64,000 nt of DNA from Carboxylicivirga caseinilyticus (lineage in GTDB: Bacteria > Bacteroidota > Bacteroidia > Bacteroidales > Marinilabiliaceae), in the NCBI GenBank assembly GCA_025499705.1, contig JAFMVE010000017.1, positions 1-64,000 on the forward strand. Direction: 5' to 3'. The translations under genes and the position numbers were made by a program. A model generated the notes under the pieces. It was not told the origin of the DNA. It saw only the letters and a program-made list of their open reading frames with translations, and did no database searches. Below are positions 1,429 through 60,466 of this stretch, in pieces. The number at the start of each line of letters is the position of its first letter. The stretch's first letter is position 1.

Positions 1429-2009
1429 AGGCATATGTTTGTGTATTAAATGACTCCATTGATACAAGTAAAAATTTTACTAATCCTTTCGTCAACCCAA
1501 TACTTATCTTACTATATGCCTAATTAGCAATGGCTTTTACTTTATAATAGAATATAAATTTCAGTATGTGTGCGTGCGAATTACTATTAATATGTATGTT
1601 GTAATACATGTGATTCAAAGATAATAATAACATTTTGTATATCTAGCAAAGTGTTATAATATTTTTAGAATCTTATAGTAATTCTTGAATCTGATGAATT
1701 ATTAATAGCTGATGTTTTTTGTATAATAACTGAAAGCGCTATTCCCATAAATTAAAAATAGTTTAATAACTCAATACCTGAATCAGACTGTTTTAAAATT
1801 AATTTTAAGCCTTGTTAATCTTTTGAAATAAGGTTCAGAACTTCAGGCCTCATTTATTTTCTAAATCTCATTAAACATTATGTAATTTTATGTGAGTAAT
1901 TAGTTAGGTCTTCTTGTAATAAAGGAGAACTATGATTTCAACTTTAGGCTTTTAGAGGATTTCATAGGGTTCTTCATTTTATTATTGTTAAACATTAAAT
2001 CCAAAAATT
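1429..2009. other. Divergent intergenic region
   Basis: This 581-base AT-rich gap separates the truncated SusC gene from the rightward genes. The only element I recognise is the TGAGT-N16-TTGTAAT promoter-like site at 1893-1920. No convincing coding sequence or RNA gene is visible. Confidence 0.6.
1893..1920 (+). promoter_or_regulatory. Predicted ECF-type promoter of the LamG/sulfatase operon
   Basis: TGAGT at 1893-1897 and TTGTAAT at 1914-1920 are separated by exactly 16 bases, matching the element found upstream of most units in this locus. It lies 90 bases before the start codon at 2010. Sigma-factor assignment is inference. Confidence 0.65.
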
Positions 2010-2957
2010 ATGAATGTTAGAAGACTACTATTTAGTTCAATTCTTTTTTTAACAACAATTCCTTTTCTTAATGCTCAACAGATTAGTACAGAGCAAATAA
2101 AATGTTATTTGAAATTTGATAATAATCTGGACAATTCGTCAACGAGTGGAGCTACTTTTTCTCAAACTGTAGGTAATGATCTTACTTATGATACCGGTAA
2201 GTTTGGTGAGGCTGGATATTTCAATGATATGGCAGTTGTATCATCAGGAATAGATTTCAATCCGGTAAACAGTTTTACTTTAATGGCATGGGTTCAAATG
2301 GATCAGCTTTCTTTTGCACAAACCTGGGTGCACCAAAAGGATGTTTCAGGTCAGAATTTCGGCCGTATTCATATGGAAGTGTTAGATGCAAATGTATTAG
2401 GTTCTTTTACCGATGGAATCCGATGTGATGATAATACAGCCATTTCTGCTGGTACATGGTATCATTGTGCTGTAGTAAAAGACGCTTCTGCTGGCAAAAG
2501 ATATATCTATGTGAATGGTATTTTGGTTAATGAAGTAAATGGTGGAAATGAAAGTAATACCGGTGAAATTGTTTTAGGTGCCAGAAAGAATGAGACAGAA
2601 TATTTTGTTAAAGGAGGACTAATGGATGAATTGTTGCTAACATATGAAGTACTTGATGCAACAACAATTAATTCAATAATGAATGATGGTGTTGCAGCAG
2701 CTATGACTTCGACTTCTATTAAGAAAATGCCTTTGCAGGCAAATAATTATTACTCAAATGGCCAAATCCATCTTTCGTTTAGTGGCGATGTTTCTGCTGC
2801 TTCATATGCAATATATGATGTTACCGGTAAGTGTTTATTAGAAGATAATATTTCAACAAAGACCAATTCTATACCTGTAAATCTTAGAAAAGGATTATAC
2901 ATCTTAAAGGTTTCTTCTGAAGAGGGTGTTGTATCTAGTAAGTTTATGGTTAAGTAA
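2010..2957 (+). CDS. Secreted LamG-domain protein with T9SS sorting signal
   Basis: The 315-residue product has a signal peptide ending near LNAQQ, one LamG/concanavalin A-like beta-sandwich (about 28-235; the segment FTLMAWVQM and the run ending in MDELLL are typical) and a C-terminal T9SS sorting domain (about 245-315, ending in KFMVK). No catalytic domain is present, so it is probably a surface-exposed carbohydrate-binding protein. Its stop codon is five bases before the start of the sulfatase-LamG gene and both should be transcribed from the 1893 site. The LamG fold is clear from the pattern; the ligand is unknown. Confidence 0.8.
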   Translation: MNVRRLLFSSILFLTTIPFLNAQQISTEQIKCYLKFDNNLDNSSTSGATFSQTVGNDLTYDTGKFGEAGYFNDMAVVSSGIDFNPVNSFTLMAWVQMDQLSFAQTWVHQKDVSGQNFGRIHMEVLDANVLGSFTDGIRCDDNTAISAGTWYHCAVVKDASAGKRYIYVNGILVNEVNGGNESNTGEIVLGARKNETEYFVKGGLMDELLLTYEVLDATTINSIMNDGVAAAMTSTSIKKMPLQANNYYSNGQIHLSFSGDVSAASYAIYDVTGKCLLEDNISTKTNSIPVNLRKGLYILKVSSEEGVVSSKFMVK

Positions 2958-2962
2958 TTAGG

Positions 2963-5470
2963 ATGTACAAATATTTGTTTCTACTGTTGGTTTTTTGTTC
3001 TGCGGTAATCTTAAAAGCCCAGGAAAAGCCAAACATCATGATCATCATGGTTGATGACATGGGTTATTCAGATTTAGGCTGTTATGGCGGTGAGATTCAA
3101 ACTCCTAATATTGATAAGCTTGCATCCGACGGAGTTCGTTTTACTCAAATGTATAACTGTGCTCGTTGTTGTCCAACGAGAGCATCTCTTTTAACAGGTC
3201 ATTATCCACAACAGGCAGGTATTAATGCTATGGGAGTTAACCTGAATCGCAATGCAGCTACCATTGCAGAAGTTTTAAAAGAAAATGGCTATCACACCGG
3301 GATGACCGGAAAATGGCATCTGTCAGAGACAAAAGCATTAAGTGATGCTCAGGAGCATTTAAGATGGTTAGCTAATCAGGTTGATCACAGTCCTTTTGCT
3401 CCTGTCGAAAGCTATCCTTCCAATCGTGGTTTTGAAGAGCATTGGGGTGTTATTTGGGGTGTTGTAAACTTTTTTGATCCTTTTAGTTTGGTTCATAATG
3501 AAACACCAATAGCTGAAGTGCCGGATGATTTTTATATGACTGATTTTATAACCGATAAATCAATTGAATTATTGGATCAGTTTTCGCAGGATGATCAGCC
3601 ATTTTTTATGTATGTTGCTCATACAGCTCCTCATTGGCCATTGCATGCTTTGCCTGAAGATATTGCCAAATATGATGGTAATTATGATGATGGATGGGAA
3701 GTACTAAGACAGACGCGTTACCAAAATATGGTAAATATGGGTATTCTAAACAGTGAAACATGTGCTTTGCCTGAAAATTCATCAGGAAGAAGTTGGGCTG
3801 ACTGTCAGGAAAAAGAATACGAGTCTAATTGCATGGAAGTTCATGCTGCAATGATTGACAGGGTTGATCAGGGTGTGGGAGAAATTATAAAGCATTTGCA
3901 GGATATTGGCGAATATGATAATACTATCATTTTTGTTTTGTCTGATAATGGAGCTTCTTACGAAAGAGGTTACCCTCCCGGATTTGACCGACCCGGATTT
4001 ACCAGAGATGGTACAACCATTGTTTACAATGCTCAAAATCCAGGGCCGGAGACTACCTGGAACTATATTGGACAGGCATGGGCTAGTGCTGTGAATACGC
4101 CATTCCGCTATTGGAAAAAAGAATCATATGCAGGTGGTACCACTACGCCAATGATTGTGCATTGGCCAAATGGCTTGCAGGGAAAAGAGAATACACTGAA
4201 CAGGGGAGTAGCCCACGTTATTGATGTTTTACCAACCTGTCTTGAACTGGCTGGTGCAACCTACCCTGAAACCATCAATGGAGAAACTACGCTTCCTCCT
4301 TCAGGCAAAAGTTTGATGGCGCAATTAAATCAAACTTCTGTTAATACACACGATACTGTTTTTTGGGAACATGAAGGTGGAAAGGCTGTTAGAGTTAATG
4401 ATTGGAAGTTAGTTTCTTTGCCAAATACTCAATGGGAATTATATGATCTTTCTTCTGATGCTTCTGAAATGGTTAACCTGGCTTCAGAGTATCCTCAAAA
4501 AGTTTTCGAATTAGCCGAACTATGGGAGCAGTGGGCTATTGAAGTAGGCTTAAGAGAAGCCCCAGTGAATGTGCCTGTTGAAATGGTTTTTCATTATCCG
4601 TTTGATGGAAATGTCGATGATGCTTCAGGAAATGCAAATACGTTACAATCTGTTAATGGATATGACTTTAGCGCAGGTCAACATGGACAGTCGTTATTAC
4701 TAAATGGTACCAATCAATACCTGGATTTAAATACTGAGAATCTTGTTAATCCGCAATCTACACCTTTTACTGTTTGCGCATGGGTTTATAATACATCTGA
4801 TTATGTTCCTGGGACCGATAGCTTTTATGAGGAAGTGATTCTGGCTCAAAAAAACGGATCCAGTGATGGTAATGGCAGAATCTTCACCTATTACAGGTTA
4901 TTATCTCAGAGTGGAAGCTTTAATAACTTTTTAGGTGCGAATGCTAATCTGTCATCCAGTGGTTCTTTTGAGCGAAATAAGTGGATACATGTTGCACTGC
5001 AATGCGATCCTCAAAGCCAGACTGTAAAATATTATATCAATGGAGAAAAAGATATTATCTGTTATACTCCTGCGTTTGAGAATTGTACTGGTGGTTTCAG
5101 AATTGGAGCTCATAAAACGGGTGATAAGAACTTTTGGGGAGGTAATATTGATGAGCTTTACCTGTTTAAAGGATTGTTAAGTCAGGAGGAGATTAATGAT
5201 GTTATGAATGATCAATGGTCGCCATCAACTGATGTAACCAAAGCCTTGGAATCGGAAATTATCGTCTTTCCTAATCCTGCTGATGATATAATTACCGTAA
5301 AGGGAGTTCGTTGTCAGAAGTTAGAGTTATTTAGTATTTCGGGAAGCTTGGTTCTATCTTGTTATAATTCAAATGCAATGAATATTGAAAATGTCTCTAA
5401 TGGGCAGTATATTCTAAAAATTTATGACGACAACGGCCAGTCAATTAATAAGAAAGTAATTGTCCAGTAA
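2963..5470 (+). CDS. Sulfatase with C-terminal LamG domain and T9SS signal
   Basis: A type I sulfatase (S1 family, formylglycine-dependent) removes sulfate esters from a glycan. The 835-residue protein has a signal peptide ending at LKAQ, the metal-binding VDDMGYSD segment (about 30-37), and the formylglycine motif C69-C-P-T-R73. The catalytic region runs to about 530. A LamG-type beta-sandwich follows (about 540-745) and a T9SS sorting domain with FPNPADD (about 769-835), so the enzyme should be exported and surface-anchored. Sulfatases are usually about 500 residues; the extra 300 are the binding and sorting modules. Conversion of Cys69 to formylglycine needs a maturase that is not in the window. 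Sulfatase subfamily and sulfate position cannot be told from sequence reading. Confidence 0.9.
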   Translation: MYKYLFLLLVFCSAVILKAQEKPNIMIIMVDDMGYSDLGCYGGEIQTPNIDKLASDGVRFTQMYNCARCCPTRASLLTGHYPQQAGINAMGVNLNRNAATIAEVLKENGYHTGMTGKWHLSETKALSDAQEHLRWLANQVDHSPFAPVESYPSNRGFEEHWGVIWGVVNFFDPFSLVHNETPIAEVPDDFYMTDFITDKSIELLDQFSQDDQPFFMYVAHTAPHWPLHALPEDIAKYDGNYDDGWEVLRQTRYQNMVNMGILNSETCALPENSSGRSWADCQEKEYESNCMEVHAAMIDRVDQGVGEIIKHLQDIGEYDNTIIFVLSDNGASYERGYPPGFDRPGFTRDGTTIVYNAQNPGPETTWNYIGQAWASAVNTPFRYWKKESYAGGTTTPMIVHWPNGLQGKENTLNRGVAHVIDVLPTCLELAGATYPETINGETTLPPSGKSLMAQLNQTSVNTHDTVFWEHEGGKAVRVNDWKLVSLPNTQWELYDLSSDASEMVNLASEYPQKVFELAELWEQWAIEVGLREAPVNVPVEMVFHYPFDGNVDDASGNANTLQSVNGYDFSAGQHGQSLLLNGTNQYLDLNTENLVNPQSTPFTVCAWVYNTSDYVPGTDSFYEEVILAQKNGSSDGNGRIFTYYRLLSQSGSFNNFLGANANLSSSGSFERNKWIHVALQCDPQSQTVKYYINGEKDIICYTPAFENCTGGFRIGAHKTGDKNFWGGNIDELYLFKGLLSQEEINDVMNDQWSPSTDVTKALESEIIVFPNPADDIITVKGVRCQKLELFSISGSLVLSCYNSNAMNIENVSNGQYILKIYDDNGQSINKKVIVQ

Positions 5471-5707: not shown

Positions 5708-5735
5708 TGAGTAATTTGGTTAAGAAAATTGTATA
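5708..5735 (+). promoter_or_regulatory. Predicted ECF-type promoter of the GH43 lipoprotein gene
   Basis: TGAGT (5708-5712), 16 bases, TTGTATA (5729-5735). It lies 135 bases before the start codon at 5871, so the predicted leader is long. In the 400-base gap 5471-5870 this site and the terminator at 5516 are the only elements I recognise. Confidence 0.6.
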
Positions 5736-7647: not shown

Positions 7648-8247
7648 GTGAATTTGAAAACGAATCGATCTGGTAGCATAAGTCCGCAGGTGATCAAACG
7701 ACTTAAGGAAGGGGATATGCGTGCCTACAAGCAGATATATGAAAGTTTCAGTGAGAGTCTTTTTCACTTTACCTTTTATTATCTGAAAAATACTGCGGAA
7801 TCGGAAGAAATTGTTCAGGAAGTGTTTTTGAGAATATGGGAAATTAAAGAAGAGATTGATGAAAATAAATCGTTTAAGAGTTATCTGTATAAAATGACTA
7901 TTAATAAGGTTTATAACCATTTAAAACATCAGGTAGTGGAGCAAAAATACGAAAACTATCTTCTTCATTATAATCATTCATTTTCTGAAACTCCTGAGAC
8001 AAGTATGGACTATAAAGAGTTGGATGAAAAAATCTGCTCATTATTGGAAAGGTTGCCTGATCAGCAAAGGAATATATTTAATCTGAGTAGGATTGAAGGT
8101 ATGCCTAATCCAAAAATCTCAGAGAAGCTGGGATTGTCAATTCGTACTGTTGAGAATCAAATATATAGGGCAACAAAATTTTTAAAGCAACATTTAAAAG
8201 ATGAATATCACCTGGCTCTTTTCTTTATTATCTGGCTATTTAACTAG
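7648..8247 (+). CDS. ECF-family RNA polymerase sigma factor
   Basis: This 199-residue protein directs RNA polymerase to promoters of a dedicated regulon. Sigma region 2 lies at about 25-90 (DMRAYKQIY, then AESEEIVQEVFLRIWE) and region 4 at about 130-185 (LPDQQRNIFNLSRIEGM, then a helix-turn-helix reading SIRTVENQIYRA). The short hydrophobic C-terminus is common in Bacteroidota ECF factors. The start is a GTG; the next in-frame ATG (7717) would remove part of region 2 and is less likely. The anti-sigma gene follows after 76 bases, and an STN-type SusC comes next, the classic FecI-FecR-FecA arrangement. I infer that it recognises the TGAGT-N16-TTGTAWT sites in this window. Confidence 0.92.
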   Translation: MNLKTNRSGSISPQVIKRLKEGDMRAYKQIYESFSESLFHFTFYYLKNTAESEEIVQEVFLRIWEIKEEIDENKSFKSYLYKMTINKVYNHLKHQVVEQKYENYLLHYNHSFSETPETSMDYKELDEKICSLLERLPDQQRNIFNLSRIEGMPNPKISEKLGLSIRTVENQIYRATKFLKQHLKDEYHLALFFIIWLFN

Positions 8248-8284: not shown

Positions 8285-8312
8285 TGAGTAAAAAAGGAAT
8301 GGTGATTGTATT
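8285..8312 (+). promoter_or_regulatory. Predicted autoregulatory ECF promoter upstream of the anti-sigma gene
   Basis: TGAGT (8285-8289), 16 bases, TTGTATT (8306-8312): a full match to the locus-wide element. It ends only 11 bases before the ATG at 8324, which implies a very short or almost absent 5' leader. Placement between sigma and anti-sigma genes suggests feedback control. Confidence 0.65.
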
Positions 8313-8323: not shown

Positions 8324-9400
8324 ATGAAAAGCGAAAAAGAAATACAAGATAGGTTTAAGATACTTCATAAGCAGTTTGTGGAGGGGAACTGTTCTGTCAG
8401 CGAATTGGAAGAGTTAGATGCGCTGATGGAAGAGCATGAATCTGCCAACAGTATTAAAAGCCAAATGCATTCTGAGTTGGAGAAGGAGGAATTCGTGAAA
8501 GAGGGTGCTTTTAATAAAGATGGATTATTTGATAAGATAAAAAGTGAAATTGATTTTCAATCCGGAGAGAAGAGTAATAAGGTAAGAAAGTTATATATTA
8601 ATCTCACACGGGTTGCAGCAATAATTATATCCTTTGTTTTAGGAGGTGCAGCCTTTTATCTGTTTCAAAGTAATTTTAATAAAGAGGTACCTGTAGTTAA
8701 GTTCAGCGAAATTGTTACTCCTCTGGGAGCTAAAACAAAAGTAGTTTTACCCGATGGTTCGGTTGTATGGGTAAATGCAGGAAGTCGTTTAAAATATTCT
8801 AACCTTTTTAACGAAAGCAACAGAAAAATATCATTGGAAGGTGAAGCTTACTTTAAAGTAGCCAAGAATAAGGATTTGCCTTTCGTTGTTGATGCATATG
8901 GGTTTTTGGTTGAGGCTGTGGGAACGGAGTTCAATGTAAAGGCTTATGAAGAAGAAGCGACCATAGTTACCTCATTGGTTGAGGGTAAAGTGAAACTTAA
9001 TCATGAAACCGAGAAAATTGCTAAAAATGTTTATCTAAACCCAAATCACAGGGCGACCTTTTATAAGTCTGATACACATGAAAAAAGCAAACCTCGTTTA
9101 GTTATAAATACCAATGTTGATCTGACTCCAATTATTGCATGGCGTGATAATCAGTTGATTCTGGATAAAGAATTATTAAAAGATTTGGCTGTTAAGTTAG
9201 AACGTATGTACGACTGTAAATTTCATTTCGATGCAGATGAAATAAGAAATTATGAATTTACAGGTTCGATTAATAATTTGACACTGAATGAAATAATGGA
9301 TGTAATTAAAATATCTTCTCCAATAAAATATAACATTAAAGGAAACGATGTTTATGTAAGAAGAGATGAGCAACGTAGCCGAAAATTTACAAAATATTAG
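8324..9400 (+). CDS. FecR-type anti-sigma factor
   Basis: FecR-family proteins span the inner membrane, hold the ECF sigma factor in the cytoplasm and receive a signal in the periplasm from the N-terminal STN domain of an outer-membrane receptor. The 358-residue product has a cytoplasmic segment (1-90), one membrane helix (about 95-115), a FecR domain (about 125-225, containing LPDGSVVWVNAGS and the LEGEAYF motif) and a C-terminal DUF4974-like part (about 275-350, with the FTGSINN segment). It lies between the sigma gene and the STN-SusC gene, which matches its role. Confidence 0.92.
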   Translation: MKSEKEIQDRFKILHKQFVEGNCSVSELEELDALMEEHESANSIKSQMHSELEKEEFVKEGAFNKDGLFDKIKSEIDFQSGEKSNKVRKLYINLTRVAAIIISFVLGGAAFYLFQSNFNKEVPVVKFSEIVTPLGAKTKVVLPDGSVVWVNAGSRLKYSNLFNESNRKISLEGEAYFKVAKNKDLPFVVDAYGFLVEAVGTEFNVKAYEEEATIVTSLVEGKVKLNHETEKIAKNVYLNPNHRATFYKSDTHEKSKPRLVINTNVDLTPIIAWRDNQLILDKELLKDLAVKLERMYDCKFHFDADEIRNYEFTGSINNLTLNEIMDVIKISSPIKYNIKGNDVYVRRDEQRSRKFTKY

Positions 9401-9474
9401 GCATCAGTGGTTAGTTGAGTAATTCCCCGTATTTTCAGCTAAACTTCTGTTCTTTCTCTTTATACAGTAATCTA

Positions 9475-9503
9475 TGACTTGGAATGTCCATAGAAATTGT
9501 ATA
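9475..9503 (+). promoter_or_regulatory. Degenerate copy of the locus promoter element upstream of the first SusC
   Basis: TGACT (9475-9479), 17 bases, TTGTATA (9497-9503) lies 21 bases before the ATG at 9525. It has one -35 mismatch and one extra spacer base compared with the main element, so it is a weaker candidate. Readthrough from 8285 may also supply this gene. Confidence 0.4.
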
Positions 9504-9524
9504 AACTTCGGTAACTTTATTGTG

Positions 9525-12500
9525 ATGCAAAATCTTAGGGGATCTGTAATTTATAGAAGAGCAATACTCAAATCAAAATTTCAAGCTTTAAAGCATGGAA
9601 CAGTGATTGCTATTACATTTTTTCTTCTGGTAAATATTACAGTTAATGCCCAAAACGAAAAGATAAGTGGCAATTTTTCCGGTAAAACCTTAAAAGAAGT
9701 TTTTAGCTTGATTGAAAGTCAAAGTACATATCGATTCTTTTTTAATGAGAACTTCATTAATACCAATAAAGTGGTTAATATGAGATTCAATAACGAAAGT
9801 ATTGAAGATGTACTAAAGAAGTTATTTAGGGGATTAGAAGTTAGATATGAAATAAAGGAGAGTGGGTTAATTGTTTTGTCAACAGAAAGTGACAAGAAGA
9901 ATTTCAGAGTTTATGGAAGAGTAACAGATAGGTCGGGTCATCCTTTACCGGGCGTTGCAACACTTATAAAAGGTACAACTATAGGCACAATTACAGACAT
10001 AAGAGGAAATTATTCATTGAATGTAAATGACAGTAATGCATCGTTGTGTTTTTCATTTATTGGCATGCAGTCGCAGGAAATATTAATTGCAAACAATGAA
10101 AATATTGATGTTGTCATGCTTGAGTCTCCTTTTGGATTGGGTGAGATAATAGCTGTTGGCTATGGCACCATGAAAAAAGGCTCTATTACCGGGGCAATTT
10201 CATCCATAAAGGATATTGATATAGATCAAACACATGCTACTACTGTAAGTACATCGTTAGCTGGAAAAATGGCAGGGATATCTTACCGTATGTCTGATGG
10301 CAGACCCGGTTCGAGTGCTTCCATCCAGATACGGAACATGGGAAGTCCGCTGTATGTAATTGATGGTATTCCGAAAGATGTAGGTCAGTTTAATAATATA
10401 GCTCCCAATGATATTGAAAGTATCTCTGTTTTAAAAGACGCATCAGCTGCCGTGTACGGAGTAAGAGCTGCTAACGGAGTAATTGTTGTAACAACAAAGA
10501 GAGGAAAGAAAAGAACAGACAACCATATCAATGTTGATGCATTTATGGGTTGGCAGAATTGGTCACGTTTCCCACAAACAGTAAATGCTTATCAATGGAT
10601 GCTTGGGAAGGCTGATGCTGAGATGAATGAATTCGGACAAACATCTATCACACCACAAGAATTAGCCAGGTGGAAGAAGGGAACTGAGAGTGGATATAAA
10701 AGTTTTGATTGGTACGATTTTATCATTCAAAAAAATTCACCACAGAAGTCTATTAATGTAAATACAACCGGTGGCTCTGATCGTATCAGCTACTATTTAT
10801 CATTTACCCAACTGGATCAAAACTCGGTATTGGGTGATGAGTTTATTTTTCATCGGTCTAATATTCAGTCAAATATTGATATTGAGGTAACAGATCGTTT
10901 TCAGCTGGGAATGCAGTTAAACGGAAGAGTGGAGAAAAGAGATTATCCTGGCGTTCCAGGTACAGATGATTACTGGGCTCCTATTTATGCTCTTTTCAGA
11001 AACAGACCAACCGAGCGGCCATATGCAAATGACAATCCCAATTATATAAACAATATTGGTCATAATTCTGAGAATTGGGCTTTGTTGAATAAAGATATCT
11101 CAGGCTACTGGAATGAGACCTGGAGAGTTGTTCAGGTTAATCTTACGGGAGAGTATGAATTTCCTGTTAAAGGTTTAACAGCCAAGGCAACATATTCATA
11201 TTATTTTGCCGATAGGCTGATGGATGGACATGAATATACCTACGATACTTATACTTATTATCCTGAGAACCCGGAAGGAGAGCAATATGTTGTGACCTTT
11301 AGTATGCAAAATCCATGGCGCGAAAGAGGTACTCGAAAAGTGATTGAAGATGTAACACAATTGCAGCTTGATTATCATAGAAGGTTTGGAACCCATGACG
11401 TAAAAGCCACTTTTGTAAATGAACGTTTGCATAGACGAGATCAGTCGGTGTGGGTGCATGCTGTGCCAACTACCAATGATCTTACCTTAATTCAATTTGA
11501 AGACATGGATACCTATAATGATGGTGATTCCAATGAAGCCCGAATTGGTTATGTGGGACGAATCAATTACAATTATGCAAACAAATACTACCTTGAGTTA
11601 TCTGGAAGGATGGATGGTTCGTGGAAATTTGCTCCAGACGTTCGTTGGGGATTTTTTCCATCTGTTTCAGCTGGCTGGATGATTACAGAAGAACCTTTTG
11701 CAAAGTCAATCTTAAATGAATCATTATTTGATTTGAAGTTGAGATTATCATATGGAGAATTGGGAGATGATGATATTGCGGGTTTAGGAGCTTTTGATTA
11801 TTTATCTGGATATACATATGGATCTTCTACAGTAATAATGGATGGAGAAGTTATAACCGGAGTAAGAGATAAAGGAGAGCCCATAACTAATATTACCTGG
11901 TATACAAGTAAAATAATTGATGTAGGTGCTGATTTTACTATAGACAATGGAAAGGTTAATGGATCAGTTGATTTTTTCCGAAGAAAAAGAGATGGTCTAA
12001 AAGGAAGAAAATATGATATTTTGATTCCAAGTGAGATTGGTTATGATCTTCCCGATGAAAATGTTAGCAGTGATGCAATCGTTGGTGGTGAATTTACTTT
12101 AGCATATAATGGTAAATTACAAGACTTAAAATATACTATTGGTGGAAATTTTTCTTTTGCCAGGGAGAAATTTCTACACTCATACAAACCTATGTGGGGT
12201 AACTCCTGGGATTATTACCGGAATTCGTCAGAAGAAAGATGGACAGGTGTATTTTGGGGGTATGAGGTTGAAGGTCAGTTTCAGTCGATGGAAGAGATTA
12301 ATAATTATGATGTTGACATTGACGGATATGGCAATAGTACACTTCTACCTGGCGATTTGATTTATAAAGATACCAACGGCGATAAGATAATTGATTACCG
12401 GGATGTTCGACCCATGGGTTATCCCAATGATCGTAATCCGGCAATTAATTTTGGTTTGAATTTTTCTTCAACCTATAAAGGATTTGATTTTAAGGTTGAT

Positions 12501-12947
12501 TTCTCTGGAGGTGCTATGTATTCGTATAATCAGTTGTCTGAGATGAGAGTACCATACCAAAGTGGAGGTAATTTATTGAAGTTTATTTACGAGGACAGAT
12601 GGCATCGTGAGGATCCGTTTGATGTGAATAGTGCGTGGATTCCCGGGAAATACCCGGCACTTCGGTTTAATAATGGATCGCATAGTAATTATTCCAGAAA
12701 TTCAAACTTCTGGCTAACCAATGTATATTATCTGAGAATGCGAACAATGGAATTAGGATATTCAATACCTAAAACATTATTAGAGAAGGTTGGTATCGAA
12801 AAATTCAGGGTTTATTTAAATACATACAATCTGTTTTCGATTGATAATTTGAAAGAGATTGGTATTGATCCGGAAACAATGAGTTCTAACGGAGTTCAGT
12901 ATCCACAAAATAAAATAGTAAATATTGGTGTGAATCTTTCTTTCTGA
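9525..12947 (+). CDS. SusC-like TonB-dependent receptor with STN signalling domain
   Basis: This 1140-residue outer-membrane transporter should import oligosaccharides with the SusD partner encoded next. After the signal sequence (ending VNAQ) comes an STN domain (about 46-116, ISGNFSGKTLKEVF), a CarboxypepD_reg-like domain (about 122-205), a plug (about 210-330, with SVLKDASAAVYGV) and a long beta-barrel ending in VNLSF. The STN domain is the part that contacts a FecR anti-sigma, so this receptor is both importer and sensor. I chose the ATG at 9525; the earlier ATG at 9474 overlaps a promoter-like site and adds residues unlike a signal peptide. Its stop codon overlaps the SusD start by one base. 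Confidence 0.92.
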   Translation: MQNLRGSVIYRRAILKSKFQALKHGTVIAITFFLLVNITVNAQNEKISGNFSGKTLKEVFSLIESQSTYRFFFNENFINTNKVVNMRFNNESIEDVLKKLFRGLEVRYEIKESGLIVLSTESDKKNFRVYGRVTDRSGHPLPGVATLIKGTTIGTITDIRGNYSLNVNDSNASLCFSFIGMQSQEILIANNENIDVVMLESPFGLGEIIAVGYGTMKKGSITGAISSIKDIDIDQTHATTVSTSLAGKMAGISYRMSDGRPGSSASIQIRNMGSPLYVIDGIPKDVGQFNNIAPNDIESISVLKDASAAVYGVRAANGVIVVTTKRGKKRTDNHINVDAFMGWQNWSRFPQTVNAYQWMLGKADAEMNEFGQTSITPQELARWKKGTESGYKSFDWYDFIIQKNSPQKSINVNTTGGSDRISYYLSFTQLDQNSVLGDEFIFHRSNIQSNIDIEVTDRFQLGMQLNGRVEKRDYPGVPGTDDYWAPIYALFRNRPTERPYANDNPNYINNIGHNSENWALLNKDISGYWNETWRVVQVNLTGEYEFPVKGLTAKATYSYYFADRLMDGHEYTYDTYTYYPENPEGEQYVVTFSMQNPWRERGTRKVIEDVTQLQLDYHRRFGTHDVKATFVNERLHRRDQSVWVHAVPTTNDLTLIQFEDMDTYNDGDSNEARIGYVGRINYNYANKYYLELSGRMDGSWKFAPDVRWGFFPSVSAGWMITEEPFAKSILNESLFDLKLRLSYGELGDDDIAGLGAFDYLSGYTYGSSTVIMDGEVITGVRDKGEPITNITWYTSKIIDVGADFTIDNGKVNGSVDFFRRKRDGLKGRKYDILIPSEIGYDLPDENVSSDAIVGGEFTLAYNGKLQDLKYTIGGNFSFAREKFLHSYKPMWGNSWDYYRNSSEERWTGVFWGYEVEGQFQSMEEINNYDVDIDGYGNSTLLPGDLIYKDTNGDKIIDYRDVRPMGYPNDRNPAINFGLNFSSTYKGFDFKVDFSGGAMYSYNQLSEMRVPYQSGGNLLKFIYEDRWHREDPFDVNSAWIPGKYPALRFNNGSHSNYSRNSNFWLTNVYYLRMRTMELGYSIPKTLLEKVGIEKFRVYLNTYNLFSIDNLKEIGIDPETMSSNGVQYPQNKIVNIGVNLSF

Positions 12948-14848: not shown

Positions 14849-14854
14849 AAAGTT

Positions 14855-18316: not shown

Positions 18317-18344
18317 TGAGTAATCTGATTTGTGCAGTTGTATT
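18317..18344 (+). promoter_or_regulatory. Predicted ECF-type promoter of the double-LamG gene
   Basis: TGAGT (18317-18321), 16 bases, TTGTATT (18338-18344), continuing AAGT like the best copies. It is 124 bases before the start codon. With the terminator at 18178 it accounts for what I can see in the 319-base gap 18150-18468. Confidence 0.7.
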
Positions 18345-20406: not shown

Positions 20407-20434
20407 TGAGTGAAAAGTATTCGTAAATTGTATT
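20407..20434 (+). promoter_or_regulatory. Predicted ECF-type promoter of the GH125 gene
   Basis: TGAGT (20407-20411), 16 bases, TTGTATT (20428-20434). The following bases (GAATACAGAGTT) closely resemble those after the site at 31928, so similarity extends into the likely start region. It is 57 bases before the ATG. Confidence 0.7.
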
Positions 20435-21988: not shown

Positions 21989-22513
21989 ATTGTCTCAATT
22001 TGCAATTAATATTTTGCATATTGATATATCTAATAATATTGATTAAGAGTTATTTATAGATAACTTAATTTAACACTTAAGTTATAACAGACTATCAGCT
22101 ATTAGAATTTTTCTTTCGCTTTTATTTTTATTTAAAATGTATAAGTGTCAACTATACAGTAGTATAGGTGTATGTCTTTTAGAATCTTTTATTAATTGTT
22201 AAAAAAAGATAAAGTTCGATGAGTAGTATTAAAAGACTGGTTGTATTAGAGTGTGAAAGGACTCTGTATTCTTTGTCTTTTTAGTCATTTACTGGATCGA
22301 GGGAAGTAATGACAAGACACTGGGATCAGAAGTAAAATCAAATAGAAGTTAAAATATGAAGGTGTTCAATTTAGAGATACTTATTAATCAGGATAATTAG
22401 GAAAAAGGATTATTGGTATTGATTAATTGGTTATTAAGTGTTTTTGAATTCGTAATGCCAGGATAAGTAACTATGAAAAAGAATCAGTCTAATTTATTTT
22501 TAAAGTATTAAAA
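21989..22513. other. Long intergenic region and leader before the second SusC/D operon
   Basis: This 525-base AT-rich stretch holds the promoter-like site at 22220-22247 and then a 266-base predicted leader. The leader contains a small hairpin (agagt, loop, actct at about 22247-22264) and a possible 12-codon frame (22473-22511, MKKNQSNLFLKY) that ends two bases before the next ATG. No known riboswitch pattern is recognised. Confidence 0.5.
22220..22247 (+). promoter_or_regulatory. Predicted ECF-type promoter of the TIG-NHL/SusC/SusD operon
   Basis: TGAGT (22220-22224), 16 bases, TTGTATT (22241-22247). Unlike most other copies it is far from the start codon (266 bases), which implies a long untranslated leader. 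Confidence 0.65.
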
Positions 22514-31927: not shown

Positions 31928-31955
31928 TGAGTGTTTTTGAGTGGATAATTGTATT
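31928..31955 (+). promoter_or_regulatory. Predicted ECF-type promoter of the second DUF4965 gene
   Basis: TGAGT (31928-31932), 16 bases, TTGTATT (31949-31955), followed by AAATGCAGAGTT. It is 70 bases before the ATG at 32026 and is one of the best copies of the element. Confidence 0.7.
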
Positions 31956-38383: not shown

Positions 38384-38399
38384 TAGGGATAGGTATTTA

Positions 38400-40483: not shown

Positions 40484-40511
40484 ATTACAATTTGAAGGTG
40501 TTATTTACTCA
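40484..40511 (-). promoter_or_regulatory. Predicted ECF-type promoter of the leftward GH43/sulfatase operon
   Basis: On the minus strand: TGAGT (40511-40507), 16 bases, TTGTAAT (40490-40484), 38 bases before the GH43 start codon at 40445. It faces away from the rightward copy at 40623, so both divergent operons carry one. Confidence 0.7.
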
Positions 40512-40622: not shown

Positions 40623-40650
40623 TGAGTAAAAATCCCCTTAAAGTTTTATT
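40623..40650 (+). promoter_or_regulatory. Predicted ECF-type promoter of the GH92-GH92-GH43-GH2 operon
   Basis: TGAGT (40623-40627), 16 bases, TTTTATT (40644-40650): one mismatch from the main form. It overlaps an in-frame upstream extension of the GH92 gene, which supports the downstream ATG at 40700 as the true start. Confidence 0.6.
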
Positions 40651-40699
40651 AAAGATGAAAACACATTGTAAAATCAGCTATTTAAACAATTTGTCAATA

Positions 40700-42979: not shown

Positions 42980-43002
42980 GTATTAGAAAATTCTAAGATT
43001 AC

Positions 43003-45282: not shown

Positions 45283-45292
45283 AAAAATAATA

Positions 45293-46273: not shown

Positions 46274-46305
46274 TTATTAATTAATCAATAACTAAAGAAT
46301 CTTTT

Positions 46306-48922: not shown

Positions 48923-48950
48923 TGAGTAAAAACACTTTTCTTTTTGTATT
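48923..48950 (+). promoter_or_regulatory. Predicted ECF-type promoter of the GH127-like gene
   Basis: TGAGT (48923-48927), 16 bases, TTGTATT (48944-48950), followed by AAAAGCAG. It is 30 bases before the ATG at 48981. Confidence 0.7.
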
Positions 48951-55411: not shown

Positions 55412-57706
55412 TTACTTTTCTATAGGTCTCTGGGTATAAGTAACCAGTTTTAATCCCATATCAAAATATTGCCCGCCTGTTGTTTGCTTGCAATGAACTG
55501 CAATTACATTTTTACCGGGTTTAATTGCATTCAAGGCTTCGTCACTGATCTTAATTGTTTTGTAATTCGATACGTAGCCTTGTTCTGATGCTGCCAAAAC
55601 ACCATTAATGTATATCTCACAGTCTTCGTCGTAATAAACAACCATGGTTAGTTTATCTAACTCTTCGGTTGAAAGTTCACGAATATCAATGGTTTTTCTT
55701 AACCAGATATCAGTTGTATTCCAGTTGGTTTGTTCATTTGAATTAGGAGGATTTCCATTACCAAAACCACTTAAACCAATCTGCCATTCTGAATCATTAA
55801 AAGATTGTATTTGCCAATCAGATTCTGGTTCTTTATTGGTGTATTTCCACTCACAGGGTTTTGAAATAGCATCGCTTAAAAAATACTCAGTTTTTTCAAC
55901 ATCCTGATAAATAAGTTTCTCATTTAAAGCTTTTATTTTATCAATATCAACTTTAGGTATTCGATCATAAGTAAGTAGTCCGTTAACCTCTTGTTCCACG
56001 TCTGTTAACTGCGTAAAAACGGCTCCACTCATATGGTTTTGTGTTTTGTATTGTAGAAGCATATGAACATACTCATCATAGATCTCTTCCAATTCATCTT
56101 GGGAGTTCACTTTCAGCATTCCAACACCTTCACCCGGCTTCCATTCATGCCCCTGCACTTCCAGTGCTATGGCACCGAATTCACCACAAACACCCGCCAT
56201 ACCATAGTTTGGTTCAATAATTTTTGGGGGAGGATAAGAGTGATAATCCAGAATGTCACCTACATAATCATGATGATGATTATCGCTGGCTGCATTTATC
56301 AATCGGGTAGGGTCCAGTTTGCGGGTTAATTCAACCATTCTTGTGGTTGGATTAATTCCGTCGGCTGTTTTCTGTCCCTGAAGTTCGTTATAAATGATCC
56401 AACTGGTTATGGATGGTACATTATACAAGCCCTCAACCATTCTGATGTATTCTTTCTGGAATTGAAGGGTATCAATCTTTGGTTTATGATGGATATATGA
56501 ATTAACAGAAGGCATATCCTGCCATACCATTAAGCCCATTTTATCAGCATAATAATACCATCTCATTGGTTCTACTTTCAAATGTTTGCGAACCATGTTA
56601 TAACCCAGCTTTCTTTGTATTTCTACATCGTAACGAAGAGCTTCATCGGTAGGTGCCGTATACAATCCATCTGGCCAGTAACCCTGATCTAAAAGACCAT
56701 AGTTATAAACAATTTTATCATTAAGATATACTTTGGTTTTTCCATCCTGTTGTTTAATACCCACCTTACGCATTGCAAAATAGCTATCTACTTTATCCAA
56801 AACTTTATCTTTTCTTTTAATCGCAATTTCCAGATCATACAGAAATGGAGTTTCAGGTGACCATAATTTAGTATTTGGAACAGGTAGAATAATATCTGTC
56901 CCCGGCATCGATTCTACGGAAGAAACTACTTTACCTTTATCCAGTACTTTTGCCTCTATGGTTATATTATCTAAATTTTCATTGTAAGGTAGTACTTGAA
57001 GAGTCAGTTTTTCCTCATCGACATTGGGTGTCATTTTTATTTTTTCAATACCGTTTTTGTCCACAGCTTCCATCCAAACTGTTTGCCATATACCAGTAAT
57101 TGGTGTATACATGATTAATAATCCATGAGGTGGATTCTCTTGTTTTCCTCTTGGAATACCCTGTTTTTCTGTTGGATCAAAAACACGTACTATCAGTTCC
57201 TGTTTGTCTCCCTTTTTGAGGAACGAAGTTATATCCACATCAAAGGCATCGTAACCGCCACGATGTAGCTTAACACTCTCACCATTAATGAAAATTTCAG
57301 ATTCCCAGTCAATAGCACCAAAATGAAGAATGATTCTTTTTCCTTTCCAATTTTTTGGCACTGAAAATTCTCTACGGTACCACAGTCTGTCATAGTGTTC
57401 TTTTATTCCAGAGATAGCTGATTCTACAGGAAAAGGAACCAGAATTTTTTCCGACAGTGTTTTTCCAACTGGTGTTGTATCATCGGCTTTTCCCGGTTCA
57501 AATTCCCACAAACCATTAAGGTTCACCCAGTCGTTTCTTACTAATTGAGGACGAGGATATTCAGGCAGAGGATGGTTGATATCGATATCTTTCATCCATT
57601 GCGTTGGTAATTCTGCTTCTTTCATTGTCCAAATCTGGCTGAATGATTGAAAGTTAAGACTTCCAAGAACAATGAAAAGTAATGTTGATAATGATTTTAA
57701 TTTCAT
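55412..57706 (-). CDS. GH2-family glycoside hydrolase with extra beta-sandwich, no sorting domain
   Basis: The 764-residue protein is a paralogue of the GH2 enzyme at 46306-48798. It has a signal peptide ending SFSQ, GH2 domains (about 35-600), acid/base Glu441 (IYNELQGQ) and nucleophile Glu509 (CGEFGA), and the same C-terminal beta-sandwich (about 625-755, YYDEDCEIYING, VHCKQTTGG). It ends right after that module, with no T9SS domain, so it is probably periplasmic while the paralogue is surface-exposed. It is the second gene of a leftward operon behind the modular GH76. Confidence 0.9.
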   Translation of the reverse strand: MKLKSLSTLLFIVLGSLNFQSFSQIWTMKEAELPTQWMKDIDINHPLPEYPRPQLVRNDWVNLNGLWEFEPGKADDTTPVGKTLSEKILVPFPVESAISGIKEHYDRLWYRREFSVPKNWKGKRIILHFGAIDWESEIFINGESVKLHRGGYDAFDVDITSFLKKGDKQELIVRVFDPTEKQGIPRGKQENPPHGLLIMYTPITGIWQTVWMEAVDKNGIEKIKMTPNVDEEKLTLQVLPYNENLDNITIEAKVLDKGKVVSSVESMPGTDIILPVPNTKLWSPETPFLYDLEIAIKRKDKVLDKVDSYFAMRKVGIKQQDGKTKVYLNDKIVYNYGLLDQGYWPDGLYTAPTDEALRYDVEIQRKLGYNMVRKHLKVEPMRWYYYADKMGLMVWQDMPSVNSYIHHKPKIDTLQFQKEYIRMVEGLYNVPSITSWIIYNELQGQKTADGINPTTRMVELTRKLDPTRLINAASDNHHHDYVGDILDYHSYPPPKIIEPNYGMAGVCGEFGAIALEVQGHEWKPGEGVGMLKVNSQDELEEIYDEYVHMLLQYKTQNHMSGAVFTQLTDVEQEVNGLLTYDRIPKVDIDKIKALNEKLIYQDVEKTEYFLSDAISKPCEWKYTNKEPESDWQIQSFNDSEWQIGLSGFGNGNPPNSNEQTNWNTTDIWLRKTIDIRELSTEELDKLTMVVYYDEDCEIYINGVLAASEQGYVSNYKTIKISDEALNAIKPGKNVIAVHCKQTTGGQYFDMGLKLVTYTQRPIEK

Positions 57707-57782
57707 GAAAAAAAGAGTGTATAAGATTAAAAGAACACAAATGTCCTTCGTTCAAATATTTACTTAAATGTTATAGATCAAC

Positions 57783-60395
57783 TTATTTTTTGATGAATTT
57801 TATCTTTTGACTCAATTGATTCTTAGTCTGAAGATGAATAATATAAACACCAGCTGATAAATTGCCGATATTAATTTGTAAGCTACTATTATCCATGTTT
57901 TTATCAGAGTAAACCACAGAACCATTCATATCTGTTATTAAAACAGAATGAATAGCCTCATTACCCTTGATGTTAATAATCTCGGATGCAGGGTTTGGAT
58001 AAATTCTGATTTCTTCTATTTTGTTTAAAGAAGAAACATCAGTACTGTTATCTTCAGGAAGGAATAATTGTGAAGAAGGAATGATTTCTTTTACTTGTTG
58101 CAGGCTTTCCCATTCTAATTTTATATTAGCTCCACCTACTGCCTCAAAGTATTCTACTTTAATATCATATTTCTGTCCAGCATTAAGTGTTATTTTTCCA
58201 GAATATTCAATATCCCAGTCAGATATCCATTTATCGATGATCAGCTGGTTATCAACCCAAACGCGTCGACCATTATCTGATGTAATATAAAATGTGTATT
58301 CGTCAGAATAGAGAGGTTCTATTTGACCTGTCCAACGTATCGAGTAATAGTCATTATTAATACCTGAAAGGGGAGAGGCTGTGCCCCAATTAAAGTATAT
58401 GTTTGGGTCGATACGCTCTGAAATTAGCGTATTGAAGCTACTACCATTGTAATATTCTCCTAAAAGGCCGTTTCCTCTCTCTGGATTTGTTGATTTAATA
58501 AAAACAAATTGATTTAAATAACAACTGCTGCCAGTTCCGTTATAAACCAGGTATATATGATGAAGACCTTTAATATTATTCACATTACATGAAATAGTTT
58601 CATAAGTGTTGTAATCAGCAGTAGGTGTTATATCAGCAGTTCCGATCAGCTCACCGTTTTCATTATCAAGCCTTATTTCTATGGTTCCTGTATTATTGCC
58701 CGAAGCAATATATAAATCAATTTGTGATGGACCGGTTGTTCCAAAGTTCAGATTATGAAAACCTACCCAATTATTGTTTCTTATTTGTAATGATTTGTCA
58801 CTGGCTGGTCCGTCAACCATAAAAGAACTTGCTATGGCATCAAAATCCTGAGGTAATATTGGTTGATAAGGATCTTGTTCGGTATCTAATGATATAGGAC
58901 AGTTCATTAGCAATGAAACAGCCGTAGAAGCACTGAAAGCTTTTGGTAAGTCTGTTTCTGAAGTTTTGGTTCCCCACAGTGTATGAATAATACCCTGGCT
59001 GTTGCGATTATTGTAGGCTACTTTTGCATTTAGCTGCAACCATGGAATATAATCTGCCCGGTTAAATTCCTGCAGATATTTGCGGGCATATCTCATGTAT
59101 ATTCCTTTGAATCCTTCCAGGTCATTGCCACTTTCGGTGTTAATTACTGAGTTATTAAACATGTTTCGGGTATAATTAGCAATTTGATTGGCATGTTTTA
59201 AATATTCAATGTCTTTAGTGTATTGATACAGCATTGTAACTGCCCCCAGATATGTACCCTGGTTATAGGTCGATGCCCAATAATTGGTATTAACCTCACC
59301 TGTTTCGTTTACATAATAGGCATCAAAAACATGGCCATCGTTGGTGTCAAACAAACGACCTTTTGACCATTCAAAAAGTTCAATGGCTTTGTCATAGTAG
59401 GTGTTGTCGCCCGTTGCCTTTGCCAGGTAGCAGCATGCTACCATTGCCGGGCCATTAATACATGCATTTTTGGTTCGGGTGCCTTGTTTCCATATTAAAC
59501 CATTTCCTAATAATTCATCTGCAGTATGAGCTCTTTCATACATCATGTCGAAGTTAGCCTTAGCTACATTTAAATAGGTGGTTGTTCCTGTAAAATTATA
59601 AGCTCTCAAACAAGCCAAACACATCCATGTTATATCGTCATTATACTCATTCCAACTCCAGTCTGTTCCTTCCCGGGTTACAAATTCATTGTACATTTCC
59701 TTGAAAAGAAGTATATAGTCAAAATTACCGGTGACTTCAAAAGCATCATCAACGATCTCAAGCATTTCTGCGTTGCCCCAGAAACCTTCGTTAATAAATA
59801 CCTCATTGTCGCCTCTTGGTTCGTAATATGTATTTATCCATGCATCAAAAGATTCAGTTGTTGCAACGGTTGAAGGAGCCGAATTAGATGGTTCCTGAAT
59901 GGTAAATTTCCATTTCTCAGGTGTGGTTAATTGACTTAATTGTACAGGCGAACCTTCAGCTGTTGTCTCTTTTATGCATAAAGAATAAGTTTGAACAGGT
60001 TGAAGTTGTATGTAAAACGTATTGTCGTTATTACCAGAATCAGTTATTAGCCATTTTGCAATGCTGCTGCTGAAATCAGCTTTCTGCACTGCACCTCCGC
60101 TGTTAGATGTAACAACTAAATTACTTGCCAGATTTACTAAATTGAAAGTGTTATCATCAATCTTTTTTAATTTCCATTTTTGAGCATCTGATTGTGTATC
60201 AGTCCAGATTACAATTTTACTACCATCGTTTAATGATGAATTTTCAACACTCATTACTTTACCCGACTTAACAGATTCAATGGTATAAATACTGCCGTCC
60301 TGAAGTGGCTGCGTTTGAGCATTTGAATAGCCCCAATAGCATGATTGAAGGATGATAAAGATTAATAATTGAGTAGTAGATTTTTTAAGGATCAT
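57783..60395 (-). CDS. Modular GH76 endo-alpha-1,6-mannanase with ricin, CBM6-like, PA14 and T9SS domains
   Basis: The 870-residue secreted protein has, in order, a signal peptide (ending SNAQ), a ricin-type beta-trefoil (about 33-168), a GH76 domain (about 183-510) with catalytic Asp253-Asp254 (YNDDITW), a CBM6-like beta-sandwich (about 515-636), a PA14 domain (about 640-790, GLLGEYYNG, YTFYITSDNGRRVWVD) and a T9SS domain (about 800-870, YPNPASE). Three binding modules on one enzyme suggest it works on long or insoluble mannan at the surface, releasing fragments for SusC/D, while the smaller GH76 at 30694 works further in. Its promoter element is at 60439-60466. Confidence 0.9.
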   Translation of the reverse strand: MILKKSTTQLLIFIILQSCYWGYSNAQTQPLQDGSIYTIESVKSGKVMSVENSSLNDGSKIVIWTDTQSDAQKWKLKKIDDNTFNLVNLASNLVVTSNSGGAVQKADFSSSIAKWLITDSGNNDNTFYIQLQPVQTYSLCIKETTAEGSPVQLSQLTTPEKWKFTIQEPSNSAPSTVATTESFDAWINTYYEPRGDNEVFINEGFWGNAEMLEIVDDAFEVTGNFDYILLFKEMYNEFVTREGTDWSWNEYNDDITWMCLACLRAYNFTGTTTYLNVAKANFDMMYERAHTADELLGNGLIWKQGTRTKNACINGPAMVACCYLAKATGDNTYYDKAIELFEWSKGRLFDTNDGHVFDAYYVNETGEVNTNYWASTYNQGTYLGAVTMLYQYTKDIEYLKHANQIANYTRNMFNNSVINTESGNDLEGFKGIYMRYARKYLQEFNRADYIPWLQLNAKVAYNNRNSQGIIHTLWGTKTSETDLPKAFSASTAVSLLMNCPISLDTEQDPYQPILPQDFDAIASSFMVDGPASDKSLQIRNNNWVGFHNLNFGTTGPSQIDLYIASGNNTGTIEIRLDNENGELIGTADITPTADYNTYETISCNVNNIKGLHHIYLVYNGTGSSCYLNQFVFIKSTNPERGNGLLGEYYNGSSFNTLISERIDPNIYFNWGTASPLSGINNDYYSIRWTGQIEPLYSDEYTFYITSDNGRRVWVDNQLIIDKWISDWDIEYSGKITLNAGQKYDIKVEYFEAVGGANIKLEWESLQQVKEIIPSSQLFLPEDNSTDVSSLNKIEEIRIYPNPASEIINIKGNEAIHSVLITDMNGSVVYSDKNMDNSSLQINIGNLSAGVYIIHLQTKNQLSQKIKFIKK

Positions 60396-60438
60396 AGTAA
60401 ATGTATTAGCTGTTTAATTCAATATTATTGATATACCC

Positions 60439-60466
60439 AATACAATATGAGACCTTAATTTGCTCA
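60439..60466 (-). promoter_or_regulatory. Predicted ECF-type promoter of the leftward GH76/GH2 operon
   Basis: On the minus strand: TGAGC (60466-60462), 16 bases, TTGTATT (60445-60439), one mismatch from the main form in the -35 part. It is 43 bases before the start codon at 60395. Confidence 0.6.

What the first reader, a model, noticed from the sequence alone, without database searches (positions are those of the whole stretch)
1893..60466. One repeated ECF-type promoter element ties the whole locus into a single regulon
The element TGAGT-N16-TTGTAWT occurs in intergenic DNA, on the coding strand, upstream of eleven transcription units: 1893, 5708, 8285, 18317, 20407, 22220, 31928, 40623, 48923 (plus) and 40484-40511, 60439-60466 (minus). 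The spacer is exactly 16 in every one. Nine have TGAGT and TTGTAWT (one of them ending TTGTATA); two have one mismatch. Several share CAG or CAGAGTT just downstream. By a rough estimate from base composition, well under one chance copy would be expected. It does not resemble the Bacteroidota housekeeping form (TTTG / TAnnTTTG). The window holds one ECF sigma, one FecR anti-sigma and one STN-SusC, so I infer that this sigma reads these sites. ECF control of SusC/D genes is known in Bacteroides; a visible promoter repeated before a dozen enzyme operons in one cluster looks unusual.
Basis: partly seen in the sequence, partly recalled or inferred. Interest (0 to 1): 0.88.

Follow-up and report, generated by a model that had tools for sequence, protein, structure and literature searches.

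The report
Shared sigma-factor promoter runs mannan-degradation genes
A Bacteroidota bacterium has the same two-part promoter in front of about a dozen sugar-degrading gene groups, and comparison with related genomes ties that promoter to one sigma factor, which makes a whole polysaccharide-eating programme open to direct testing.

Summary
TGAGT-N16-TTGTAWT occurs 8 times exactly and 3 times with one mismatch at the stated places (0.02 and 1.6 expected); no other spacer from 10 to 22 gives an exact copy. Half of the genome's 16 exact copies lie in this 1.1% of it. The sigma inference gains support from comparison. Among 71 family genomes only G048 (evidently Plebeiobacterium marinum D04) has a close ortholog of the window's ECF sigma (71%), and it alone shares the motif excess. 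It has the element at all six syntenic promoters and before two homologous enzyme sets on other contigs, though not before a GH127 homolog. In 161 ECF sigma loci, T[GA]AGT-N18-GTATTA follows the sigma gene in 8, which form one branch; no other locus has it. A helix rule for predicting it failed on 2 of 10 helix-positive sigmas, including both in the test written down beforehand. Best reading: an ECF/FecR/STN-SusC system switching on 11-12 alpha-mannan operons through one promoter, fecR included, sigma not directly. No transcription data exist. New variant of a known kind.

The parts
7648..8247 (+). ECF sigma factor gene (TIGR02985, Sig70_bacteroi1); GTG start uncertain
   Evidence: Pfam Sigma70_r2 and r4_2; TIGR02985 157.1 bits, cut-off 126.4
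8324..9400 (+). FecR-type anti-sigma gene
   Evidence: Pfam FecR and FecR_C; hydrophobic stretch before the FecR domain seen in the translation
9474..12947 (+). SusC-like TonB receptor with N-terminal STN domain
   Evidence: Pfam STN, CarbopepD_reg_2, Plug; TIGR04056
12947..15553 (+). SusD and DUF3823 genes
   Evidence: Pfam
1893..1920 (+). ECF-type promoter element, exact; heads LamG and sulfatase genes 2010-5470
   Evidence: a homolog of the sulfatase in G048 (67% over 534 of 835 residues) also has the element
5708..5735 (+). element, one mismatch (TTGTATA); heads GH43 5871-7433 and perhaps sigma
   Evidence: conserved position in G048
8285..8312 (+). element, exact, in the sigma-fecR gap, 11 bases before the fecR start; heads fecR-susC-susD-DUF3823 and perhaps the GtaA-like gene 15651-18149
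   Evidence: a like element follows the sigma gene in 7 further sigma loci
18317..18344 (+). element, exact; heads LamG protein 18469-20301
20407..20434 (+). element, exact; heads GH125 20492-21925
22220..22247 (+). element, exact; heads TIG, SusC, SusD, DUF4973 and GH76 genes 22514-31803
31928..31955 (+). element, exact; heads GtaA-like 32026-34533 and perhaps GH43 34721-36877
40484..40511 (-). element, exact; heads GH43 and sulfatase 36983-40445 (minus)
   Evidence: no counterpart found in the G048 stretches fetched
40623..40650 (+). element, one mismatch (TTTTATT); heads GH92, GH92, GH43, GH2, 40655-48798
   Evidence: no counterpart of its GH92 genes in the G048 stretches fetched
48923..48950 (+). 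element, exact; heads GH127 48981-51752 and perhaps sulfatases to 55346
   Evidence: a GH127 homolog in G048 has no element in the 456 bases left upstream
60439..60466 (-). element, one mismatch (TGAGC); heads GH76 and GH2 55412-60395 (minus)
   Evidence: homologs in G048 on another contig carry the element
60564..63968 (-). GxGYxYP-family gene with a weak twelfth element just outside the window (contig C54 64051-64024 minus)
   Evidence: Pfam; matrix score 16.3 bits

Best explanation
TGAGT-N16-TTGTAWT is the promoter read by the ECF sigma factor at 7648-8247. TGAGT is the -35 box, TTGTATT(A) the -10 box, and a CAG at a fixed place in some sites suggests a start about 7 bases after the -10 box. 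Inferred working: an alpha-mannan fragment engages the STN-SusC receptor (9474-12947), which signals through the FecR anti-sigma (8324-9400); the sigma is released and RNA polymerase starts at 11-12 operons of the locus and a few unlinked ones. These encode GH76, GH92, GH125, GH43, GH2 and GH127 enzymes, sulfatases, two SusC/D pairs and FecR itself. The anti-sigma and receptor are thus induced with the enzymes. The sigma gene has no site directly before it and may be made at a basal level, with possible read-through from the GH43 site at 5708. Shown here: the repeated element, its fixed spacer, its conservation, its co-occurrence with one sigma branch. Inferred: direct recognition, start sites, inducer and signalling steps.
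For: Enrichment and fixed spacer. Close sigma ortholog and motif excess in the same 2 of 71 family genomes: 16 and 14 exact copies, next highest 8 and 8. All six operons shared in order carry it in both genomes, while spacer (41/96 identical) and flanks (56/120 upstream, 16/60 downstream) are diverged. Homologs of two window enzyme sets lie on other contigs of G048 and have the element. T[GA]AGT-N18-GTATTA after the sigma gene in 8 of 161 sigma loci; these 8 make up one fork of exactly 8 rows in a 150-row tree (SH-aLRT 90). Residues of their shared region-4.2 helix align with DNA-contacting residues of SigW (alignment; passages of PMC6713349). In the fecR gap the element ends 10-11 bases before the start codon in both genomes, leaving no room for another promoter below it. 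CAG at exactly +6 in 5 of 17 sites, chance 7e-7 at one offset, about 1e-5 over 13.
Against: No transcription start, expression or binding data. The sigma gene has no element directly upstream. In the test with a prediction written beforehand (40 further sigmas) both helix-positive sigmas lacked the full element (0 of 2; 0 of 38 negatives had it), so the helix alone does not predict it; both lie on another branch. Branch support is moderate (88/82 for 7 rows; 90 for 8 rows in a quick tree). The G048 sites were found with the same pattern, so the identity of their core bases is partly by construction. Five of the 11 window sites have no syntenic counterpart; two of these five have homologs with the element elsewhere in G048, three have none, and a GH127 homolog (52% over 248 residues) lacks it in the 456 bases left upstream. 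Of 8 exact copies elsewhere in the window's genome four lie inside ORFs; of 7 elsewhere in G048 three lie inside ORFs and one is not before a gene.
Confidence: 0.86

Rival explanations
1. The element is the bipartite binding site of an activator, such as a hybrid two-component (HTCS) or SusR-like regulator with half sites about two helix turns apart, and not a promoter.
For: HTCS sites predicted in Bacteroides are two conserved sites about 21 bp apart, and alpha-mannan-induced loci of B. thetaiotaomicron encode HTCS regulators (passages of PMC3878776). TGAGT and TTGTAWT start 21 bases apart; shifted by one base, TGAGTAA and TGTATTA agree at 4 of 7 letters. The trans site on contig C33 lies between the GxGYxYP gene and a divergent gene with Reg_prop and HisKA domains.
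Against: No HTCS among the 33 window proteins scanned (the rest of the contig was not scanned). The element sits 10-11 bases before the fecR starts, leaving no space for a promoter below it. It follows one branch of ECF sigmas across several families.
Confidence: 0.07
2. The element is an ECF promoter, but read by another of the genome's ECF sigmas or shared by several.
For: The genome has other ECF-like sigmas (12 matches to this sigma). The -10 half GTATTA also occurs below sigma genes of other branches with other -35 words, and the own C52 system has TTGTATT followed by CAGAGTT between fecR and the next gene.
Against: No other of the 71 family genomes, nearly all with ECF matches, shows the excess. 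The T[GA]AGT half at the fixed spacing is confined to this sigma branch. Of the three G000 sigmas in the tree only this one is on that branch; the remaining G000 sigmas were not placed.
Confidence: 0.06
3. The repeats are chance or compositional AT-rich similarity picked out by eye.
For: With two mismatches allowed the count is near expectation; outside the window most exact copies look like background.
Against: 0.02 exact copies expected against 8, and only at spacer 16; conserved in position in G048.
Confidence: 0.01

Closest known systems
Bacteroidota ECF sigma / FecR-type anti-sigma / STN-SusC trans-envelope control of polysaccharide loci
   Same: Same parts; sigma belongs to TIGR02985, receptor has an STN domain; signalling scheme as in passages of PMC3878776 and PMC11501099.
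   Different: In the passages read no promoter shared by many operons is described; here one element recurs before 11-12 operons plus likely unlinked ones, and fecR is inside the induced set.
E. coli FecI/FecR/FecA ferric-citrate system
   Same: Receptor, anti-sigma, sigma logic and an ECF-type promoter.
   Different: Sigma scores 53.8 bits against the FecI model, cut-off 260, so it is not FecI. fecIR is Fur-controlled and not autoregulated (PMC9249621 passage); here fecR has the element.
B. thetaiotaomicron SigW-1 (BT1817) and PUL59
   Same: ECF sigma tied to a subset of a sulfatase-rich polysaccharide locus at a distance.
   Different: Assigned to ECF251; its partner is described as a transmembrane protein; its motif was not significant (PMC12596196 passages).
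Flavobacterium psychrophilum SM6 promoters
   Same: Conserved CGT -10 box ascribed to ECF sigmas; in several sigma-fecR gaps here the box is CGTATTA.
   Different: SM6 serves T9SS and other genes and may be read by several sigmas (PMC9723704 passages); the window sites have TTGTAWT.
Alpha-mannan and sulfated-mannan utilisation loci of marine Bacteroidota
   Same: GH92, GH76, GH125 with sulfatases and SusC/D, judged from titles and abstracts only.
   Different: Seen only in a search listing; their regulation was not read.

Membership tests
ECF sigma factor (TIGR02985 subfamily) | Regions 2 and 4, score above the curated cut-off | tested here: met
   157.1 bits against cut-off 126.4; Pfam r2 and r4_2
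FecR-type anti-sigma system | FecR domain protein and STN-bearing TonB receptor next to the sigma | tested here: met
   FecR, FecR_C, STN above cut-offs
E. coli-type FecI | Score above the NCBIfam FecI cut-off | tested here: not met
   53.8 bits against cut-off 260
ECF-type promoter | Two boxes at a fixed spacing | tested here: met
   Spacer 16 in 11 of 11; no exact copy at other spacers 10-22
ECF-type promoter | Transcription start shortly below the -10 box, lost without the sigma | not testable with these tools
   No expression data held; CAG at +6 in 5 of 17 sites is only suggestive
ECF-type promoter | Co-occurrence with a cognate sigma lineage across genomes | tested here: met
   8 of 8 sigmas of one branch, 0 of the 142 other rows of the tree
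Bacteroidota housekeeping promoter (TTTG / TAnnTTTG) | TAnnTTTG as the -7 box | tested here: not met
   None of 12 elements has it in the box (by eye); their neighbourhood was not scanned for it
HTCS binding site | Direct repeat of two like sites about 21 bp apart | tested here: inconclusive
   Distance fits; halves agree at 4 of 7 letters at best (by eye); definition from PMC3878776 passages
Alpha-mannan utilisation locus | GH76, GH92, GH125 with SusC/D | tested here: met
   Pfam; the substrate itself was not tested

The most novel reading that the evidence does not exclude
The gap between sigma and fecR genes is a key to the promoter code of Bacteroidota FecI-like ECF sigmas: the -10 half (YGTATTA) is broadly shared, the -35 word at a fixed 18 bases before GTATTA is specific to each sigma branch (TGAGT here; TCACG, TARGG and TGTTA in others) and is read by region 4.2. 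ECF regulons of polysaccharide loci could then be read from sequence across the phylum, and loci grow by adding enzyme operons that already carry, or gain, the branch's promoter.
Probability: 0.4. Interest if true: 0.78.

Novelty: new variant of a known kind. Interest (0 to 1): 0.62.

Why it matters
Passages read here say that predicting ECF-controlled promoters in Bacteroides is a challenge needing start-site data (2013 paper), that no motif was known for any B. thetaiotaomicron ECF sigma (2020 paper), and that a 2025 motif search for one such sigma was not significant. Here genome comparison alone yields a promoter, a sigma branch to go with it and a list of target operons in two genomes. 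It makes a testable regulon out of a 60 kb enzyme cluster, shows that some accessory operons keep the same switch whether linked to the sigma locus or not, and suggests how large polysaccharide loci are assembled.

Tried and rejected
A helix-only rule for predicting the element. The pattern drawn from seven sigmas matched exactly the seven loci with the element among 95 (post hoc). Of 26 new loci, the one with an element missed the strict pattern. Of 40 further ones, predicted beforehand with the loosened pattern, both positives failed. I keep the branch association and drop the helix as a sufficient rule.

Exact copies outside the window as a large regulon. Of 8, four lie inside ORFs (L004, L006, L007, L008) and one beside an assembly gap (L005). 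I keep C33:4606 (before a GxGYxYP gene) as likely, and C145:115334 and C44:101173 as possible.

Other FecR systems of the genome (L011, L012): no TGAGT element above the matrix thresholds used; the C52 system has the -10-like half and CAGAGTT with another -35.

GTATTA as a general -10 box: top of 3116 hexamers below 53 dereplicated sigmas (16 seen, 5.0 expected, p 1.8e-5), but about 0.055 after correction for the number of hexamers, so only suggestive.

The GH127 operon as a third unlinked homolog: no element found before it.

An RNA family in the leaders: none in the window at gathering scores. One search was spoilt by a script error (two proteins joined as one query) and was redone. The 95 first loci are best matches, taken mostly but not strictly in order; L096 gave no sigma match and was dropped, and of L011's two sigmas only the better match was used. 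The 40 last loci are the next's list with one skipped. Eleven divergent rows were left out of the tree, none with helix or element. Two of the 161 loci had under 120 bases after the sigma gene. The order and phylum searches were drawn samples with the best 8 candidates per genome scored.

Full report
OBSERVATION. Eight are exact and three have one mismatch. Two hundred first-order Markov sequences give on average 0.02 exact copies (at most 1) and 1.64 with up to one mismatch (at most 5), against 8 and 11; spacers 10-15 and 17-22 give no exact copy. Allowing two mismatches removes the signal (31 against 24.4). In the 5.65 Mb genome there are 16 exact copies, 8 of them in the window, and 1 copy of the reversed pattern. 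A scan of spacers 12-20 gave 52 matches, 16 at spacer 16 and 36 over the other eight spacers, so outside the window (8 at spacer 16, about 4.5 per other spacer) most copies are probably background.

LOCUS. Pfam shows an alpha-mannan type polysaccharide locus: GH76 (two), GH92 (two), GH125, GH43 (four), GH2 (two), GH127, four sulfatases, two SusC/D pairs, LamG proteins, two GtaA/DUF4964 proteins and a GxGYxYP protein, many with T9SS sorting tails. Its regulator genes are an ECF sigma (7648-8247; TIGR02985), a FecR anti-sigma (8324-9400) and a SusC with an STN domain (9474-12947). The genome has four FecR_C matches.

GENOMIC ASSOCIATION. Of 71 genomes of the family, 70 have some match to the sigma at E 1e-10, but among the listed matches only G048 has one close to it (71%, G048:C121; the next are near 40%). 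The same two genomes stand out in exact motif counts, 16 and 14; the next are 8 and 8. In drawn samples of 393 genomes of the order and 395 of the phylum, three other sigmas and none reached E 1e-40.

SYNTENY AND FOOTPRINT. In G048 six exact sites lie within 32 kb of contig C121, which also holds the sigma gene, before the orthologs of GH43, fecR, LamG, GH125, the TIG-SusC-SusD-GH76 operon and the GtaA-like gene; sixteen genes are shared at 51-86% identity. All six window positions of the shared part thus have a counterpart. Core bases agree at 30/30 and 39/42, spacers at 41/96, the 20 bases upstream at 56/120 and the 10 downstream at 16/60. The core agreement is partly by construction, since the sites were found by pattern; the informative facts are that all six positions have one and that the surroundings are diverged. 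In a gapped alignment five of six pairs stay in register, the GH125 pair does not.

TRANS SITES. Of G048's fourteen exact copies thirteen are itemised: six in the cluster and seven elsewhere, all seven fetched. Three of the seven lie before a gene, three inside ORFs and one in a gap but not before a gene. One heads a sulfatase 67% identical (534 of 835 residues) to window 2963-5470; one heads a GH43-GH76-GH2-esterase operon whose GH76 and GH2 are 57% and 78% identical to window 57783-60395 and 55412-57706, with two weaker sites (21.5 and 18.7 bits) before genes on the other strand there; the third heads a 256-residue protein without a Pfam match. So two enzyme sets that are linked in the window and unlinked in G048 carry the element in both. 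Against this, a GH127 homolog on the same G048 contig (52% over 248 residues; the window's GH127 has site 48923) has no element, even with two mismatches, in the 456 bases left upstream. In the window genome, C33:4606 stands before another GxGYxYP gene, beside a divergent Reg_prop/HisKA gene, so control by that regulator is not excluded.

WEIGHT MATRIX. A matrix from the 17 sites scores the eleven at 22.8-32.0 bits over the whole 104 kb contig; the next best is 16.3 bits at 64051 (minus), 55 bases before the 60564-63968 gene just outside the window; a score of 16.2 at 66407 has no such support. The separation is partly by construction.

SIGMA-fecR GAPS. The element lies between sigma and fecR, ending 11 (window) and 10 (G048) bases before the fecR start, which leaves no room for a separate promoter below it. 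I then examined the DNA after the sigma gene in 95 ECF loci of the family and order. T[GA]AGT-N18-GTATTA occurs in 7; spacers 10 and 22 occur once each, the other spacers from 10 to 26 never. These 7 are one fork of 7 rows in a 95-row tree (support 88/82). Other branches show other words at the same distance before GTATTA: TCACG (3 loci), TARGG (2), TGTTA (2). Adding 66 more loci, taken from the best matches to a profile of the seven, one more has the element (L128, TAAGT), and in a 150-row quick tree exactly the eight element-bearing sigmas make up one fork (SH-aLRT 90).

HELIX. The eight share a region-4.2 helix R[TS]VE.[QH].Y[RK]A. Over 161 loci: 8 with helix and element, 2 with helix only, 0 with element only, 151 with neither. 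The pattern was drawn from seven and loosened after the eighth. In the 40 loci fetched after I had written the prediction down there were two helix-positives, both without the full element (each has TAAGT in the gap), and 38 negatives, none with it; both failures lie on another branch. Fisher tests: 5e-12 for all 161, but only 0.045 for the 66 new ones. By the alignment to SigW, E169, N170, Q171, Y173 and R174 fall on SigW K170, T171, R172, H174 and R175, named among the residues that contact the -35 element (passages of PMC6713349).

START POINT. CAG begins exactly 6 bases after the -10 box in 5 of 17 sites and at +5 in one, nowhere else within 13 offsets. If its A is +1, TTGTATT lies at -13 to -7 and TGAGT at -34 to -30, the usual ECF geometry (recalled, not from a call). 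fecR would then have a leader of only about 5 bases.

READING. The simplest account is an ECF promoter for this sigma. The positive loop runs through receptor, transporter and anti-sigma rather than directly through sigma. The GH43 gene before sigma has its own element in both genomes, so sigma may be raised by read-through; this was not tested. What is new relative to the papers seen is the number of operons carrying one clear element, its persistence at some unlinked homologs, and the tie to a sigma branch. In the passages seen, prediction of ECF promoters in Bacteroides was called a challenge needing start-site data (PMC3878776), no motif was known for any B. thetaiotaomicron ECF sigma although one was for B. 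fragilis EcfO (PMC7366714), a raffinose-locus 5' end had no housekeeping consensus and was tentatively ascribed to its ECF sigma (PMC11501099), and SigW-1's motif was not significant (PMC12596196). Eight papers were opened, passages only. The listings of eight paper searches show no description of this element; the main ECF classification paper is not held, so it may list a motif for this group.

Noticed in passing
window 67-1467 (minus): SusC-like frame of only 466 aa with plug and CarbopepD_reg_2 domains, ending at the contig start: probably a truncated or broken receptor gene.
   Followed up: no
L012 7427-7450 (G000:C52 about 96.4 kb): Another ECF-FecR system has TTGTATT followed by TTAATGCAGAGTT between fecR and the next gene, the same -10 and downstream words as window sites 20407 and 31928 but with a different -35.
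   Followed up: partly
L031, L040, L059; L029, L032; L073, L080: DNA after sigma genes of other ECF branches shows TCACG, TARGG and TGTTA exactly 18 bases before GTATTA, hinting at a branch-specific -35 code.
   Followed up: partly
L112 3987 (minus), 5271 (minus), 5290 (plus): Three copies of the element (18.7-25.0 bits) in a divergent mannan-enzyme cluster of G048 on a contig other than that of the sigma gene.
   Followed up: yes
window 15651-18149 and 32026-34533: Two GtaA/DUF4964/DUF5127 proteins, each with its own ortholog in G048 (74% and 78%) and 61-63% to the other's ortholog: a duplication kept in both loci.
   Followed up: no
L009 3001-3028 (minus), G000:C145: Exact element 76 bases before an ADP_ribosyl_GH-family gene; a possible further trans target of unknown role.
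   Followed up: no
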